From contig JAHLKT010000009.1 of assembly GCA_020444545.1 (NCBI GenBank), forward strand, positions 1 to 63,742: DNA of 63,742 nucleotides. Direction: 5' to 3'. The notes below the pieces were generated by a model. That model was not told where the DNA came from. It saw nothing but the letters and a program-made list of their open reading frames with translations, and did no database searches. Below are positions 56,917 through 63,742 of this stretch, piece after piece. A program made the position numbers and the translations under genes. This DNA is from Desulfarculaceae bacterium. GTDB taxonomy: Bacteria; Desulfobacterota; Desulfarculia; Desulfarculales; Desulfarculaceae. The first letter of the stretch is position 1. Each line of letters begins with the position of its first letter.

Positions 56917-57899
56917 CCACTCCTAGGAGAGGCCGGGCGGCCCAGTTCAAGAAAATTCTCGTCGTATTGTACCCGAGCCTGGGCTCGCAAGCGCTCCAGA
57001 TATTGCACGGCCAGAGATTCGCGGCGCTGAGCGGACAGACGCTTTTGAATCTCCGGCGCGGCCTGGGCCAGGCTCAGGGTTTGGGCGGGCCTCTTTTGTT
57101 TTACCAGCACCACGTGGAAGCCATAGGTGCTGGGCAGGGGCCCGGCCAGTTGCCCCGCTTGCAGGGCGAAAACCTTCTTCTCCAAGGCGGGCGGCATGTG
57201 CCCCCGGCTGAGCCAGGAGGGGTGCCCGCCCTCGGCCAGGGGGGCGCCCAGGGCATCGGCCGCGGCGCTCATGTCCTGGCCCGTCTTCACCCGGTCCACC
57301 AGCTTTTGGGCCAGATCCCGGCTGGGCAACAGGGCGTGCAGGGCCAGAATCTGCTCGGGGCGCTGAAACTCCCGAACATGGCCCTGGTAATAATCACGAA
57401 CCTGAGCCGCTCCCACCCGGGCCCGGGGCATGAGTATCATGCGCAGGGCCTTTTCCATCAAGAGCTGGCGCTCCAGTTCGTCCCGCCAATCCTTGCGCGA
57501 GATGCCGTGGATGGCCAGGTTGTGCTCAAAGGCCTTTTCGTCCAGCTCGCTGAGCATGGCCTTTTCCTGGCGGGCCGCTTCCTTGGGGTCCAGGTTGATG
57601 CCCTGGCGGGCTGCGTCCTTTAGCACCAGGCGGCGGCTTATCAGATCCTCGATCATCTCGCGGCGCAGCGATTTTTCCAGCATGGCCGGATCGCCCCCCA
57701 GGCCCAGAAAAGCGGCCCGGGCCTTGAACTCATGCAGGGTGATGGCCTCGCCGTCCACCCAGGCCACGGTGGGCGCGGCCTGCTCCGGGGCGGGGGAGCA
57801 CCCCGCCATCAGAAGGGCCAGCAAGGCCGCCGCAGCGAGATATGCCGCCCATGGGCGGCGCCGCGCGGTCCCCGGCCGGGATGACACTAATCCCGCCAT
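56913..57899 (-). CDS. lipoprotein parvulin-type isomerase/chaperone
   Basis: 328 residues or so. Lipobox LLMAGC at the end of a hydrophobic leader; the mature part has a SurA-like N-terminal helical region and a parvulin domain with PLAEGGHPSWLSRGHMPPALEKKVFALQAGQLAGPL. Anchored in a membrane, periplasm-facing. ATG at 57899 is preferred; one at 57920 would overlap the mfd stop by 11 bases. Middle gene of mfd-lipoprotein-surA. Confidence 0.82.
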   Translation of the reverse strand: MAGLVSSRPGTARRRPWAAYLAAAALLALLMAGCSPAPEQAAPTVAWVDGEAITLHEFKARAAFLGLGGDPAMLEKSLRREMIEDLISRRLVLKDAARQGINLDPKEAARQEKAMLSELDEKAFEHNLAIHGISRKDWRDELERQLLMEKALRMILMPRARVGAAQVRDYYQGHVREFQRPEQILALHALLPSRDLAQKLVDRVKTGQDMSAAADALGAPLAEGGHPSWLSRGHMPPALEKKVFALQAGQLAGPLPSTYGFHVVLVKQKRPAQTLSLAQAAPEIQKRLSAQRRESLAVQYLERLRAQARVQYDENFLELGRPASPRSG

Positions 57900-57909
57900 G
57901 TTATCGGAC

Positions 57910-60900
57910 CTAGTTACCATCGCCGCCGATGTATTGCAAGAACTGCCTGGCCTGCTCCAGGGGCGGGCGCCCCGCCTCCAGGGAAAGCTTGACCCGGCCG
58001 TCCGGGAACACGCGCACCTTTTGGGGCTGTTCCTGGGCCATGGTCAAGAGGCGATCCAGGTCCAGGGCGTCGGTGCGGGTGAAATGGGCCATGAAGCCGT
58101 CGCCCGAAACGTCCAGGCGCTCGGCCCCCAGGCGGCGGGCCAGCACCTTGAGCCCCACCCCGGCCAGGAGGTTGCCCGCCGCGGCCGGGGGCGGGCCGAA
58201 GCGGTCGCCCATCTCGGCGGCCACGCCCTCCAGGTCGTCCTCGCGGCGCACCGCGCTCAGGCGGCGGTACAGGCTCAGGCGCACCTCTGGGTCGGGCACG
58301 TAGGACTCGGGCAGATGGGCGGGCAGGCCCAACTTTAGCTCGGGCTCGGGCCCCTCGGCCGGGGCCTCGCCCTTGAGCCGGGCGATGGCCTCTTCCAGCA
58401 GGCGGAGGTAGAGCTCATAGCCCACCTCGGCGGCCACCCCGCTCTGCGCCTCGCCCAGCATGTTGCCCGCCCCGCGAATCTGCAAATCGTGCATGGCGAT
58501 GGCAAAGCCCGCCCCCAGCTGGGTGAAGTCCATGAGCGCCTTGAGCCGCTTGGCCGCCTGGCGGGTCAGGGACTGCTCGCTCTTTACCAAGAGATAGGCA
58601 TAGGCCCGCTGACCCGAGCGCCCCACCCGGCCGCGCAACTGGTAGATCTGGCTCAGGCCCAGCTTGTCCGCGTTGTTGATGATGATGGTGTTGGCCGCCG
58701 GGATGTCCAGGCCGGACTCGATGATGGTGGTGCACACCAGCACGTCCAGCTCTCTTTTCACGAAAGCCATCATCACCCGCTCCAGCTCTTTCTCGGGGAG
58801 CTGGCCGTGGGCCACGCCCACCCGGGCAGCCGGGGCGAGCCTCTGCACCTGGCGGGCCATCTTGTGGATGTCCTGCACCCGGTTGTGCACCAGGAACACC
58901 TGGCCCTGGCGCTTAAGCTCACGCTCCAGGGCCTCGCGCACCGCCTGAGGAGTGAAGGGGGCCACGTAGGTCTTGATGGCCTGGCGGTCGGCCGGGGGCG
59001 TGTTGATCACGCTGAGGTCGCGCAGGCCCGAGAGGCTCATCTGCAGGGTGCGCGGGATGGGCGTGGCGGTGAGGGTGAGCACGTCCACCAAGCGGCGCAG
59101 CTTCTTGAGTCGCTCTTTGTCCTTGACCCCGAAGCGCTGCTCCTCGTCCACCACCACCAGGCCCAGGTCCTTGAACTCCACATCCTTCTGAATGAGACGG
59201 TGGGTGCCGATGACGATGTCCAGCTTGCCCTGTTTGATCCCGGCCAAGATCTGGCGCTGCTCGGCCGGGGTCTTGAAGCGGCTGAGCGACTCCACCTCCA
59301 CCGGCTGGTCCATCAGGCGCTCCACGAAGGTCTGATAATGCTGCTCTGCCAGCACGGTGGTGGGCACCAGGAAGGCCACCTGCTTGCCCTGCATGGCCAC
59401 CAGATAGGCCGCGCGCAGGGCCACCTCGGTCTTGCCGAAACCCACGTCGCCGCAGATGAGACGGTCCATGGGCTTGGCCGCGCCCAAGTCGGCCAGCACG
59501 TCCTGGATGGCCCGGGCCTGGTCCGGGGTCTCCTCCCAGGGGAAGCCCGCTTCGAACTCGCGGAAGGAGCTGTCCGGCGGGGTGAAGGACTTGCCCTTGG
59601 CGATGCTGCGCGCGGCGTAGAGCTCCACCAGGTCGTGGGCGATGAGCTCCACCGCCTTCTTGGCCCGGCTCTTGGTGCGGGCCCAAGAGTGGCCGCCCAG
59701 GCGGTCCAGCTTGGGCTTGGCGTCCTCGGGGCCGCGGTACTTGCTGATCAGGCCCATGCGGTCGGCCGGGAGATAGAGCTTGTCTCCTCCCGCGAAGACC
59801 AGGTGCAAAAAATCGCTCTCCGCCGCGCCCACGGCCACGGTGGTCAGGCCCTCGTAGCGGGCCACGCCGTGGTCCATGTGCACCACCAGGTCGCCGGCCT
59901 CCATGTCGTCCAGGGCAGCCAGCATCTCGCTCAGGCGCGGCGGGGCCTTGTGGCGCACCACCCGGGGCGCGCCGAACACCTCGTCCTCGGTGATGAACAC
60001 CACCGGCAGCTCGGCGGGCGCGAAGCCGGCGGTGAGGCCGCCTTCCAAAAGGCTGAGCGCCGGACCGCCCGGCTCCAGGGGCCAAGTCTCGGCCGCGCTG
60101 CCCCGCACCATCACCCCCACCTCACGCTCGGCCAGAAGCTCGGCCAGGCGCTGCACCTGGGAGCGGGAGCGGCACACCAGCACCGTGGCCCGGCCCTCCT
60201 CGCTCTGCTGGTCCACCCACTCCAAGAAGCGGCTGATGATGGAGCCCTCGCCCGCCCGCTTGAGCTCCGCGTGCAGGCCAGGGAAGGTGGAGGCCTTGAG
60301 CTTGATCAACTCGGCGCCGCCGCTCTTTTCCAGGCCCATGGCCAGGGCGCGGCAATGCAAGTGCGGGCGCGAATCCAGGCGCAGGGCCATCTGCTCCGGG
60401 GTGCGCCGCAGCATGGGCGGGCCCAGCACCACCCGGCCCTCCTCCCGGGCCGCCTCGAACTGCTCGTTCAGCTCGGCGCTCTGGCTCTCCAGGCGGTGCC
60501 CCACCTCGGCGGGCTCCAGCACCACGTGCCAGGCGTCCGAGGGCAGATAGGAGAAGATGTCGCCCGCATTGCTGAAGTACACCGGCAACAGCGATTCCAG
60601 GGCGGTGAAGGGGGCGCGCAGCTCGATCTTCTCCACCAGCTCGGCCAGGCGGCGGGTGGAGAGCCCCTCCTCGCGGGCCAGCTTGCGCAGGCTCTTAACC
60701 GCCCGGTCGGCGGCATCAGCCGAGAGGTCCACGGGCAGGCAGGGGATCAAGGCGGCCTCGGGCAGGGGGAGCTGGGAGCGCTGGTCGCCGGGGTCGAAGC
60801 GCCGAAGGCTCTCGATCTCGTCGCCGAAGAACTCCACCCGCACCGGGTCGTCCAAGAGCGGTCCGAAGAAGTCCACCACCGAGCCGCGCACCGCGAAGTC

Positions 60901-61446
60901 GCCCACCTGCTCCACCAGGGGCACCGGGGTGTAGCCCCCCGCGGCCAAGGCCTTGACCAGGTCATCGCGCTCCAGGCGCTGGCCCTTGGCCAAGGACAGG
61001 TAGTTGTCCAAAAGGTGCTCGGGCGGGCACAGGCGAGAGGCCGCCGCCGCGGCCGAGGTGACCACCAGCAAGGGGCGCTCGGCGGCCATCAGCTCCCAGA
61101 GCACGGCCAAACGGCGAGCCGTTACCTCTGGGGGCGGGTCCAACTCCTGATAGGGGCTCACCTCATAGGCCGGGAACAGGCGCACCGGGCTGCCGCCGGG
61201 CGCGGCGCCGGACAGGAAGAACTCCAGGTCCCTGACCAGGGTCTCGGCCACGGCCAAGGTGGGGCAAACCACCAGCCAGGCCCGGGGCGCATCCAGCCAC
61301 AGCCGGGCCAGGGCAAAGGCCCGCCCCGCGCCCTCCACCCCGCCCAGCAGCGCTGCGCCCTGGGTCTCCAGGGCCGTGCGCGCCTGCTCCAGGTTCCGGC
61401 CCGGAGGCCAGACCACGGGGTTGTCGCCGGTGGATGGCTGAGTCAT
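57910..61446 (-). CDS. mfd: transcription-repair coupling factor
   Basis: 1178 residues, full length. UvrB-like N-terminal module with [17 protein letters not shown], an RNA-polymerase interaction domain ([19 protein letters not shown]), and the translocase with [16 protein letters not shown] (Walker A), [21 protein letters not shown] and the QLRGRVGRS motif VI. It displaces stalled RNA polymerase and recruits UvrA. ATG at 61446 chosen; the frame is open to 61638 without family resemblance. Leads an operon with two chaperone genes. Confidence 0.96.
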
Positions 61447-61631
61447 GCTTTCAACCGCTTTGCCTGCCAAAAAACACAAAAATCCGCGCCACGTTGCTTT
61501 GACGCGGCTGCACGCCCCTAAAGAATAACCCTTGGTTTGGGCAGCGGCAAGTTGCCTCCTGGTGGGAGCGAGGGCCCACCTGAGGTATACTGTTGCCTCG
61601 GAATTGTCACCCAGGTCTTGAAGGAGCTCCC

Positions 61632-62702
61632 TTGCCACCGATGGTTTTGCTGAAAGAAGGCGGCGCGGCCCGCAACGTGGGCTTGCGGCTGGGCCTGAGC
61701 CTGAGCCTGATCACCGGGCTCGGGGTCAAGCTCATGGGCCTGGTGGACGACTCCCTCAAGCCCCGCCCCGGCCTGGGAGCCGGCGGCCTCACCGTGGCCA
61801 ACGCCGCCTCGGCGGTGAGCCGGGGGCGCCTCAAGGCCGAGATCGGCTCCGGCGAGCTGGAGTTCATTCCCGGCGGGCCGCCCCAGGCGGGCGAGTACCA
61901 TTTCGACGTGGCCCAACTGGAGCCCAGTTTCGCGCCCTACACCCCCATCCTGGAGCTGCTGGCCCTGCCCCTGGCCGTGGCTCCGGGTCGCAGCAACGTG
62001 ATCCTGCGGGGGGCCAGCCACGCGGTGGGCGCGCCCACCAGCGACGAGATCGCCTCGGTGCTGTTGCCCAATTTGCGCGCCTTGGGCCTGAACTTGGGCT
62101 ATAGCGAGATTTCGCCGGGATTCTTTCCAGCCGGGGGCGGCGAAGCCGAGTTGACCGTGCGCCCGGCGGTGGTGTTGCAGACCATCAAGGCCGAGGAGCC
62201 CTTCCGGGCCCTCAGGGTGGGGGTGGAGATGATGACCTCCGACCTGCCGGTGCACATGGCCGAGCAGGCCCTGCAAGGGGCCATCGACCGCTTGGCCATC
62301 CACGGCTTCGAGGCCACGGGCAACCTGCGCCGCGCCCGGGGCGGCAAGGGCCAGTCCCTTTTGGTCTGGGCCAGCGACGGCATCCTGCGGGTGGGCTTCT
62401 CCACCCTGGGCAAGCGGGGCGGACGCCCCGAGGCCCTGGCCCTGGAGGCGGTGGAGGCGATGATGCACTTTTTGCACAGCGAAGCCGCCCTGCCCACCGG
62501 CCTGGCCGCGCGTATGCTCCTGCCCCTGGCCTGCGCCAGCGGCCTGAGCTTGTTCACCGCCTCCGGCCCGCCCAAGCCCATGGCCGCGGCCGCCGGGGTG
62601 ATCAACGCCTTTTGGCCGGGCACGGTGCGCTTGTTCCAGCCGCACCCCGCCTCGCCCCTGGAGGTGCGCGTCACCGGCCGCGACTGGGGCCGCAACCTAT
62701 AG
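61632..62702 (+). CDS. RtcA-like (RNA 3'-terminal phosphate cyclase fold) protein, catalytically degenerate
   Basis: 356 residues from a TTG with AAGGAG 5 bases upstream; ATG at 61641 is an alternative. The RtcA fold is recognisable from GEYHFDVAQ, ASHAVGAPTSDEI, GYSEISPGFFPAGGGEAEL and LLPLACASG. However, the GEGGGQ loop reads KEGGAARN, and the HPSCHLLTN segment carrying the adenylylated His of E. coli RtcA reads GPPKPMAAA, with Pro316 at the His position. Cyclase activity by the known mechanism is unlikely; a binding or scaffold role is possible. Divergent from mfd. Confidence 0.7.
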   Translation: MPPMVLLKEGGAARNVGLRLGLSLSLITGLGVKLMGLVDDSLKPRPGLGAGGLTVANAASAVSRGRLKAEIGSGELEFIPGGPPQAGEYHFDVAQLEPSFAPYTPILELLALPLAVAPGRSNVILRGASHAVGAPTSDEIASVLLPNLRALGLNLGYSEISPGFFPAGGGEAELTVRPAVVLQTIKAEEPFRALRVGVEMMTSDLPVHMAEQALQGAIDRLAIHGFEATGNLRRARGGKGQSLLVWASDGILRVGFSTLGKRGGRPEALALEAVEAMMHFLHSEAALPTGLAARMLLPLACASGLSLFTASGPPKPMAAAAGVINAFWPGTVRLFQPHPASPLEVRVTGRDWGRNL

Positions 62703-62727
62703 GCGGACCGCTCCCCCGCCACACGCC

Positions 62728-62766
62728 AAAAAAACTACAGGGCGGCCCCATCGCGGGAGCCGCCCT
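62728..62766 (-). terminator. terminator of the corrinoid-protein operon
   Basis: AGGGCGGC (62739-62746) and GCCGCCCT (62759-62766) form an 8-bp stem. On the minus strand TGTAGTTTTTTT follows (T-run 62734-62728). The other strand lacks a run. Confidence 0.85.
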
Positions 62767-62802
62767 GCTTATTGAGGGCCGGGGAATTGTGTTCGCCAGG
62801 CT

Positions 62803-63444
62803 CTAGCCCATCAGGCTGGTGATCACCTTCACTGCGTCCACCGCGTCGGTGGCGTGGCCGTCGGCCCCGCAGGTCTCCAGGGCAAACTTGGGAGTGACCG
62901 CCGCGCCGCCGCAGACCACCTTGACCTTGCCGGCCAGGTCGCTGTTCTTGAAGGCCTCCACCGTGGCTTTGACGTGCGGATCGCCGGTGGTGAGCAGGCT
63001 GGAGAGCCCCACCACGTCGGCGCCCAGCTCGCGGGCTTTTTCCACGAAGGTCTCGGGGGCCACGTTCTCGCCGACGTTGATCACCTCGAAGCCAGAGCTC
63101 TCCAGCATCAGCACCACCAGGTTCTTGCCGATGTCGTGCAGATCGCCGAAGACCGTGCCGATGACCACGGTGCCGGCCTTTTCCTGCTGGGAGCCGGAAT
63201 CGGCGAGGATGGGCTTGATCACGTCCAGGCCGGTCTGCATGGTGCGGGCCGACATCATCATCTCGGGCACGAAGATCTTTTTGGCCTCGAAGCGGGCGCC
63301 CACCTCTTTCATGGCCGCGATCATGTAGTCGTTGATGATCTCCTGGGGATTGGCGCCGTGGTCTAGAGCGGCCTGCACCAGCCCGGCGATCTCCTTGCGC
63401 TTGCCCTTGCTCACTGCCTCTTTGATTGCTTCCAGGTCAGCCAC
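62803..63444 (-). CDS. corrinoid (B12-binding) protein of methyltransferase system
   Basis: 213 residues. N-terminal helical cap (DLEAIKEAVSKGKRKEI) and B12-binding Rossmann domain with the lower-axial-ligand motif GDLHDIGKN (D101-x-H103-x2-G106), then GLSSLLTT and CGGAAV. Length fits the MtbC/MtgC-type corrinoid protein that shuttles a methyl group. GTG at 63444 is chosen since AGAGGAG lies 6 bases upstream; ATG at 63450 abuts it. 30 bases after the methyltransferase gene. Confidence 0.9.
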   Translation of the reverse strand: MADLEAIKEAVSKGKRKEIAGLVQAALDHGANPQEIINDYMIAAMKEVGARFEAKKIFVPEMMMSARTMQTGLDVIKPILADSGSQQEKAGTVVIGTVFGDLHDIGKNLVVLMLESSGFEVINVGENVAPETFVEKARELGADVVGLSSLLTTGDPHVKATVEAFKNSDLAGKVKVVCGGAAVTPKFALETCGADGHATDAVDAVKVITSLMG

Positions 63445-63474
63445 GCTCATCTCCTCTATTGCCTCGCCCGGGGC

Positions 63475-63742
63475 TTAGTCTTCTACGGGAAATTGTTCGC
63501 GGTAAGCGGTGATGTAGTTCATGGCGAACTCGTCCTTGCCGGTGAACAGGTCGGTCAACACCAGGGTCCTTTTTATCTCCCAGACCGTGGGGTCGGTGAT
63601 GGGACAGGTGAGCCCGGCCATCACCGCCATGGCCAAGAAGGTTCCGTTGATGGCCTTGCGGTCCGGCAGGCCGAAGGATACGTTGGAGGCCCCGATGGTC
63701 TGGTTGACCCCCAGCTTGTCGCGGATGCCGCTCAAGGCGCTG
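63475..63742 (-). CDS. pterin-binding methyltransferase, 5' end beyond window
   Basis: The C-terminal part of a reading frame open to the window edge (63742), 88 codons visible. TIGASNVSFGLPDRKAIN and MAGLTCPITDP belong to the pterin-binding (DHPS-like) methyltransferases such as MtgA, AcsE or the MetH folate domain. It transfers a methyl group between tetrahydrofolate and the corrinoid protein encoded next. Only the last third is present, so the exact family is open. Confidence 0.85.
   Translation of the reverse strand, partial: SALSGIRDKLGVNQTIGASNVSFGLPDRKAINGTFLAMAVMAGLTCPITDPTVWEIKRTLVLTDLFTGKDEFAMNYITAYREQFPVED

What the first reader, a model, noticed from the sequence alone, without database searches (positions are those of the whole stretch)
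61632..62702. RtcA-like protein lacking the cyclase nucleophile, divergent from mfd
Recalled alignment with E. coli RtcA places Pro316 at the adenylylated His, KEGGAARN at GEGGGQ, and GLGAGGL at the RQHLT loop. The fold is retained while several active-site residues are gone, as in eukaryotic Rcl1. A bacterial Rcl1-like protein would be new to me.
Basis: partly seen in the sequence, partly recalled or inferred. Interest (0 to 1): 0.5.

Follow-up and report, generated by a model that had tools for sequence, protein, structure and literature searches.

The report
Bacterial RNA cyclase without catalytic residues
One family of bacteria carries a well-kept gene for a protein with the shape of an RNA-end-repair enzyme but without the residues that do the chemistry, which suggests that it now does another job, as happened separately in eukaryotes.

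Summary
The finding holds. [quoted passage not shown] predicted fold pLDDT 92.8, best matches RtcA). All 20 genomes examined of this family (taken to be Desulfarculaceae) carry it, 0 of 20 with the His; 158 of 158 comparison RTCs that reach the site have it. The gene is under purifying selection, is the only RTC in this genome, lies divergent to mfd in 16 of 20 genomes and has a conserved promoter-like element found almost only there. RtcB matches in 16 of 20, RtcR in none. Scores put it near RtcA (149 bits) and far from Rcl1 (16 bits), so it is a parallel to Rcl1, not a member. Most likely it makes no 2',3'-cyclic phosphate and works by binding RNA or a partner; new chemistry in a rebuilt pocket is not excluded. 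Three of 50 Planctomycetota RTCs examined also lack the His. Function is inferred, not shown.

The parts
61632..62702 (+). gene for a nucleophile-less RNA-cyclase-like protein (356 aa, TTG start; ATG alternative at 61641)
62577..62591 (+). codons P313-A317 (ATG numbering) aligned with H309-N313 of E. coli RtcA: the His column holds Pro, the Thr-Asn columns Ala-Ala
61656..61688 (+). codons E6-R16, the former GEGGGQ..R loop: Glu14 column Ala, column 17 Asn (Asn in 16 of 17 members), Arg21 kept
61743..61790 (+). codons V35-L50, the former RxxR...RQHL loop: family-only two-residue Asp-Asp insertion, Arg40 column Val, Arg43 column Lys, Gln51-His52 columns Gly-Gly
61563..61592 (+). conserved promoter-like element TGGGA-N(15-19)-GTATACT(G); GGTATACTG at 61584-61592
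61621..61626 (+). Shine-Dalgarno-like AAGGAG before TTG 61632
   Evidence: read
57910..61446 (-). mfd, divergent neighbour (likely ATG at 61446; the mechanical ORF runs to 61638; named from its sequence, recalled, no family search made)

Best explanation
This is most probably an RtcA that, in the ancestor of this family, lost the adenylylation chemistry and was kept for something else. Shown here: homology to RtcA, whole fold predicted, loss of the adenylylated His in every member and of most other essential residues, purifying selection, one copy per genome, a fixed place beside mfd, and a conserved promoter-like element. Inferred: origin from RtcA (because the rest of the superfamily examined keeps the residues), and that the protein can no longer load AMP or make 2',3'-cyclic phosphate. 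It most likely works without catalysis, by binding RNA (perhaps a 3'-phosphate or 2',3'-cyclic-phosphate end, or a structured RNA) or an RNA-processing partner, as eukaryotic Rcl1 does in the small-subunit processome. The phosphate-side segments of the pocket (columns 12-21, 38-53, 128-136, with Arg21 kept and Arg43 as Arg, Lys or His) are still conserved with new residues, while the segments at 284-288 and 306-313 are looser than the rest of the protein. That fits a kept binding site without the ATP half.
For: His309 absent in 20 of 20 members, present in 158 of 158 comparison RTCs that reach the site (7 of 165 do not). Of 17 members that reach the N-terminal columns: Glu14 lost in 17, Gln51 lost in 17, Arg40 not Arg in 17 (Lys in 2), His52 lost in 13, Arg21 kept in 15, Arg43 kept as Arg in 13, with Lys 2 and His 2. 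Asp287 lost in 20 of 20; Gln288 kept in 2 of 20. Maize RCL1 is described as lacking five of seven essential residues (Glu14, Arg43, Gln51, His52, His320 of human) and hence unable to start the reaction (PMC9048941, section 17 read). Fold: pLDDT 92.8, pTM 0.91; full-length matches to RtcA and Rcl1. One clade, 100/100 support. dN/dS NG86 0.105-0.399 in 9 of 9 chosen pairs; YN00 0.044-0.167 in 8 of 9, one failed. One RTC in the genome. Segment conservation. A precedent for non-catalytic binding: E. coli RtcA catalytic mutants still form the RtcR-RtcA-RtcB complex (PMC9650030, abstract and passages read).
Against: No RNA-binding or partner data exist. The neighbour is mfd (DNA repair, recalled), not an RNA gene, and downstream genes vary. 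Former active-site segments are only slightly more conserved than the rest in the family (entropy 1.10 against 1.29; 304 of 5000 random draws as low), so a kept pocket is suggested, not shown; and the 306-313 segment as a whole is not looser than in ordinary RTCs (1.43 against 1.58), only looser relative to its own background. RtcR is absent (0 of 20), so the E. coli precedent cannot apply as such, and there RtcAB catalytic activity is needed for transcription activation (PMC9650030). RtcB was not found in 4 of 20, among them G012 at 92% completeness. The tree does not nest the family inside RtcA: the midpoint root falls on its branch, and no Rcl1 row was included.
Confidence: 0.6

Rival explanations
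1. Repurposed enzyme: the old pocket was rebuilt to bind another ligand and carries out a different reaction.
For: Family-only conserved residues sit on the old active-site segments: Asn at column 17 (16 of 17), an Asp-Asp insertion (15 and 17 of 17; no comparison sequence has it), Gly at 49 and 51 (16 and 15 of 17), Thr132, Ser133 and Glu135 columns (17, 18 and 17 of 19), Ala-Ala at 312-313 (20 and 18 of 20). The glycine loop, RxxR loop and 128-136 segment stay tight (0.91, 0.91, 0.92 bits). The fold class also contains EPSP synthase and MurA (Z about 12-13).
Against: No known catalytic constellation was recognised; the segments at 284-288 and 306-313 average 1.52 and 1.43 bits against 1.29 for the rest; conserved residues may be structural.
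Confidence: 0.2
2. It is still an RNA cyclase that uses another nucleophile.
For: Three His columns remain (window H127 in 19 of 19 members that reach it, H205 in 18 of 19, H221 in 17 of 19).
Against: H127 is nearly invariant in ordinary RtcAs too and is Asp in E. coli RtcA; H205 and H221 lie in the insert domain. Glu14 (metal ligand, recalled), Gln51 and Asp287 are lost as well, and the Tyr284 column, mostly His or Tyr in comparison RTCs, is Gly, Ala, Ser, Asp, Gln or Glu in at least 16 of 20.
Confidence: 0.07
3. A decaying relic of rtcA with no function.
For: Fast change: the 18 other aligned members share 37-81% identity with the window protein, and a long branch leads to the clade (0.91 plus 0.42 changes per column on the two sides of the midpoint root).
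Against: No stop inside any match, dN/dS well below 1 in 9 of 9 pairs, conserved promoter-like element, and present in 20 of 20 genomes.
Confidence: 0.05
4. A regulator or accessory of RtcB that binds RtcB or its RNA substrates without repairing ends.
For: RtcB found in 16 of 20 family genomes; E. coli RtcA interacts with RtcB and RtcR independently of catalysis (PMC9650030, passages).
Against: Not adjacent to rtcB in this genome (contig C8 against C9); RtcR absent in 20 of 20; G012 keeps this gene with no RtcB match.
Confidence: 0.08

Closest known systems
RtcA, RNA 3'-terminal phosphate cyclase (E. coli, Pyrococcus horikoshii)
   Same: Superfamily, full-length fold with insert domain, Arg21, PGL and GFFPxGGGE motifs, 24-28% identity in structure matches
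   Different: No adenylylated His, Glu14, Arg40, Gln51 or Asp287, mostly no His52; below the curated RtcA cut-offs (149 bits against 250 and 352); family-only Asp-Asp insertion
Rcl1 / RCL1, eukaryotic 18S rRNA biogenesis factor
   Same: RTC fold without the nucleophile; Glu14, Gln51, His52 and the His also lost in maize RCL1 (PMC9048941 section 17)
   Different: 13-16% identity; Rcl1 model 15.9 bits against 227.95; maize RCL1 also lacks Arg43, which most members here keep; its partner Bms1 and the SSU processome are eukaryotic (recalled)
Nucleophile-less RTCs in Planctomycetota (L269, L271, L272)
   Same: RTC proteins without the His
   Different: Single divergent cases placed apart from this clade on a quick tree; L271 has an in-frame stop and keeps an R..QH-like loop; L272 is a second copy in a genome with a higher-scoring RTC whose His was not checked

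Membership tests
[quoted passage not shown]
   (fold predicted, with RtcA rows in the alignment)
RtcA (RNA 3'-terminal phosphate cyclase) | Adenylylated histidine (EcHis309) | tested here: not met
   Pro in the window; 0 of 20 members have His
RtcA (RNA 3'-terminal phosphate cyclase) | Other essential residues Glu14, Arg21, Arg40, Arg43, Gln51, His52 (PMC9048941 names five of seven, the His included; Arg21 and Arg40 are recalled) | tested here: not met
   window A R V K G G; only Arg21 and, as Lys, Arg43 are kept
RtcA (RNA 3'-terminal phosphate cyclase) | Curated equivalog cut-off (TIGR03399, NF003246) | tested here: not met
   149.1 of 250.05 and 149.5 of 352 bits
RtcA (RNA 3'-terminal phosphate cyclase) | ATP-dependent 3'-phosphate cyclisation | not testable with these tools
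   needs purified protein
Rcl1 (TIGR03400) | Sequence membership of the Rcl1 family | tested here: not met
   15.9 bits against 227.95; 13-16% identity to Rcl1 structures
Rcl1 (TIGR03400) | RTC fold with the catalytic His absent | tested here: met
Rcl1 (TIGR03400) | Role in small-subunit rRNA maturation, binding to Bms1 | not testable with these tools
   no partner or phenotype data

The most novel reading that the evidence does not exclude
The Desulfarculaceae independently turned RtcA into a bacterial counterpart of Rcl1: a conserved non-cyclase RNA factor (rRNA or tRNA maturation, or end binding), with a rebuilt pocket and its own dedicated promoter, replacing rather than accompanying the cyclase.
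Probability: 0.35. Interest if true: 0.7.

Novelty: new variant of a known kind. Interest (0 to 1): 0.5.

Why it matters
Rcl1 is the known example of an RNA cyclase turned into a non-cyclase factor, and yeast Rcl1 is essential for growth (PMC4914098, passage). A separate bacterial case, kept in a whole family and in single copy, would let one ask which part of the cyclase fold is worth keeping once the chemistry is gone, in cells where the gene might be removed. [quoted passage not shown]

Tried and rejected
Membership in Rcl1 was tested and rejected. Another RtcA in the same genome that would make this a spare copy: none found (one RTC match). Mobile origin: tblastn of plasmids and phages gave 4 and 1 distant records at 28-30% identity, not followed up. 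Link to RtcR control: no RtcR match in 20 of 20 genomes, E. coli control found. Operon partners: downstream genes differ between genera (a lysS-lolC-lolD-like order in the six g7 genomes, others elsewhere; names judged by eye from ORF starts, no family search made), so no partner was inferred. Ordinary rtcA beside mfd outside the family: no mfd, PpiC or corrinoid-gene match in 23 such loci of 2.6-4.0 kb (L115-L134, L021-L023; four further loci in that call hold rtcB). Structured RNA near the gene: no Rfam match at gathering score in window 57000-63742. L271 sits next to the family branch on the quick tree but keeps an R..QH-like loop upstream of an in-frame stop and is read as a decaying RTC. 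On that tree the printed tally for the three His-less Planctomycetota rows is 1 change, because rows in no group are not counted; the drawn tree puts them in three places, on long branches.

Rows dropped: L017, L018, L024 (fragments) from the trees; L025 (second fragment of the G019 gene) and the duplicates L026-L028 from the family counts; L041, L044, L052, L060 from the structure alignment; L041, L052, L060 from the tree; the tree used a chosen 66 rows. G247 counts twice in the comparison set, as two fragments (L221, L238). At least L274, L276 and L290 repeat records of the first set, so the two censuses are not independent. The Planctomycetota census took the best 30 and 20 low-scoring matches among 135 genomes with a match; the archaeal one only the best 30 of 193 genomes with a match; the Pseudomonadota one all 19 of 19.

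Full report
Observation. It matches Pfam RTC (9.4e-25, 87.5 bits, cut-off 27) and the RTC insert domain (1e-5), and E. coli RtcA chains with E 6e-24 to 1e-23. The His309 column of E. coli RtcA is Pro316 (TTG numbering), the GEGGGQ stretch falls on EGGAARN, and LLRQHL on LGAGGL.

A family trait, not an accident. A search with the window protein in 60 relatives and then with the family profile in the class (63 genomes) found it in 20 of 20 genomes of the same family (two of them only as fragments of a cut contig at the site, G014 and G019). Outside the family only 3 of 43 genomes of the class had an RTC match at that limit (G021, G041, G052), all with the His. Named records among the hits (L026-L028) are Desulfarculaceae (taxonomy line). 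The phylum search drew 395 genomes; 129 matched, 10 of them of the family, and the matches of the other 119 were fetched. With three class genomes and 42 loci this gives 165 comparison sequences. Of these, 158 reach the His column and 158 have His; 7 are cut or broken before it. In the family 0 of 20 have it: Pro 7, Glu 5, Ala 4, Gly 3, Ser 1. Of 17 members that reach the N-terminal columns, Glu14 and Gln51 are lost in 17, Arg40 is not Arg in 17, His52 is lost in 13, Arg21 is kept in 15 and Arg43 kept as Arg in 13. Asp287 is lost in 20 of 20 and Gln288 kept in 2 of 20.

Not unique in bacteria. A second census in other phyla (99 sequences: 50 Planctomycetota, 19 Pseudomonadota, 30 of an archaeal phylum) gave 95 with His, 1 broken before it, and 3 without: L269, L271, L272, all Planctomycetota. 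On a quick tree they sit in three places on long branches. L271 has an in-frame stop; L272 is a second copy in a genome with a higher-scoring RTC, whose His was not checked. So the loss probably happened more than once, but only the Desulfarculaceae group is seen here as a kept family. Sampling favoured high-scoring matches in the archaeal set, so His-less proteins there may have been missed.

Selection and origin. dN/dS between chosen close pairs is 0.105-0.399 (NG86, 9 pairs) and 0.044-0.167 (YN00, 8 pairs; one failed). On a tree of 80 RTCs the 17 full-length family rows form one clade with 100/100 support, on a long branch (0.91 plus 0.42 changes per column on the two sides of the midpoint root). 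That tree is unrooted in substance and holds no Rcl1 row, so it does not itself show descent from RtcA; I infer it because the examined rest of the superfamily keeps the residues. The Rcl1 model gives 15.9 bits against a cut-off of 227.95, the RtcA models 149 bits against 250 and 352. The genome has no other RTC match.

Structure. The AlphaFold2 model has mean pLDDT 92.8 and pTM 0.91. The alignment used contained RtcA rows, so nearness to RtcA is partly built in. Foldseek ranks RtcA first (E 1.2e-31 to 4.3e-30, TM 0.84-0.88 by query length) and the Rcl1p-Bms1p entry next (8.1e-24, TM 0.81). VIA-align gives Z 40.8 for P. horikoshii RtcA, 39.3 for E. coli, 32.6-35.7 for Rcl1 and processome chains taken to be Rcl1, about 12-13 for EPSP synthase and MurA.

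What the old active site became. Columns in the former active site are, in the family, about as conserved as elsewhere (1.10 against 1.29 bits; 304 of 5000 random draws as low), whereas in ordinary RTCs they are far more conserved than the rest (1.11 against 2.27; 0 of 5000). The glycine loop, the RxxR..QH loop and 128-136 remain tight in the family (0.91, 0.91, 0.92), with new residues: Asn at column 17, an Asp-Asp insertion seen in no comparison sequence, Gly at 49 and 51, Thr-Ser-x-Glu at 132-135. The 284-288 and 306-313 segments average 1.52 and 1.43, above the family's own background. Against this: in ordinary RTCs the 306-313 segment also averages 1.58, so as a whole it is looser only relative to background; 284-288 is clearly looser (0.70 there). 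My reading is that the ATP and nucleophile side was given up while the phosphate or RNA side was rebuilt and kept. This is inference; distances could not be measured.

Gene context. mfd lies divergent to the gene in 16 of 20 genomes (own window and 15). In three the contig ends first (G014, G017, G018); in G012, the most divergent member, no mfd match lies in the 17 kb held. The downstream side varies. RtcB matches in 16 of 20, RtcR in 0 of 20. A promoter-like element precedes the gene: GGTATACT occurs 19 times in 369,300 bases of the window and 20 family loci, 17 of them just upstream of this gene. TGGGA-N15-19-GTATACT occurs 16 times in 20 whole genomes, 14 of them upstream of this gene; the control (pattern read backwards) occurs 6 times. 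G001, G003 and G009 have GGTATACT but not the full pattern at this place, G012 has neither, and in G014 and G017 the upstream side is cut off. In the window's genome the N16-19 form occurs once. Its use as the gene's promoter is inferred from position and direction; it could also serve mfd.

How it most likely works. E. coli RtcA starts with attack of His309 on ATP (PMC6277466, passage read). Without it that first step should not occur, the argument used for maize RCL1 (PMC9048941, section 17 read). I therefore take the protein to be a non-cyclase that binds RNA or an RNA-processing partner (0.6). Rcl1 is the working analogy; a yeast Rcl1 mutant fails through loss of Bms1 binding, while the equivalent human mutant still supports rRNA maturation (PMC4914098, passages read). 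Rivals are a new chemistry in the rebuilt pocket (0.2), an RtcB accessory (0.08), another nucleophile (0.07) and decay (0.05).

Novelty. A kept bacterial family of nucleophile-less RTC proteins did not show up in the listings; these cover an open-licence library and most subscription papers are not held. I file it as a new variant of a known kind.

Noticed in passing
window 61563-61592 (+), and upstream of the gene in L071-L084, L087, L090: GGTATACT conserved across genera in front of this gene (17 of 19 occurrences in 369 kb), mostly with TGGGA 15-19 nt before GTATACT (14 of 16 occurrences in 20 genomes).
   Followed up: partly
L022, L211, L215-L218, L226-L228, L231-L234, L236: A variant RtcA with SGSGT in place of EGGGQ (Glu14 column Ser) that keeps the nucleophile His, Arg21, Arg40, Arg43, Gln51 and His52: 14 of 165 comparison sequences.
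   Followed up: no
L269, L271, L272: Three Planctomycetota RTCs without the nucleophile His; L272 is a second copy in its genome, L271 has an in-frame stop.
   Followed up: partly
L071 10183-12018 against window 62703-62803: In the nearest relative an ORF of about 612 aa, whose start looks by eye like a 2Fe-2S ferredoxin domain, lies between this gene and the corrinoid-protein gene; in the window only about 100 bp separate them.
   Followed up: no
window 62737-62768 (-): Terminator-like hairpin (13 pairs) with a T-run behind the corrinoid-protein gene.
   Followed up: no
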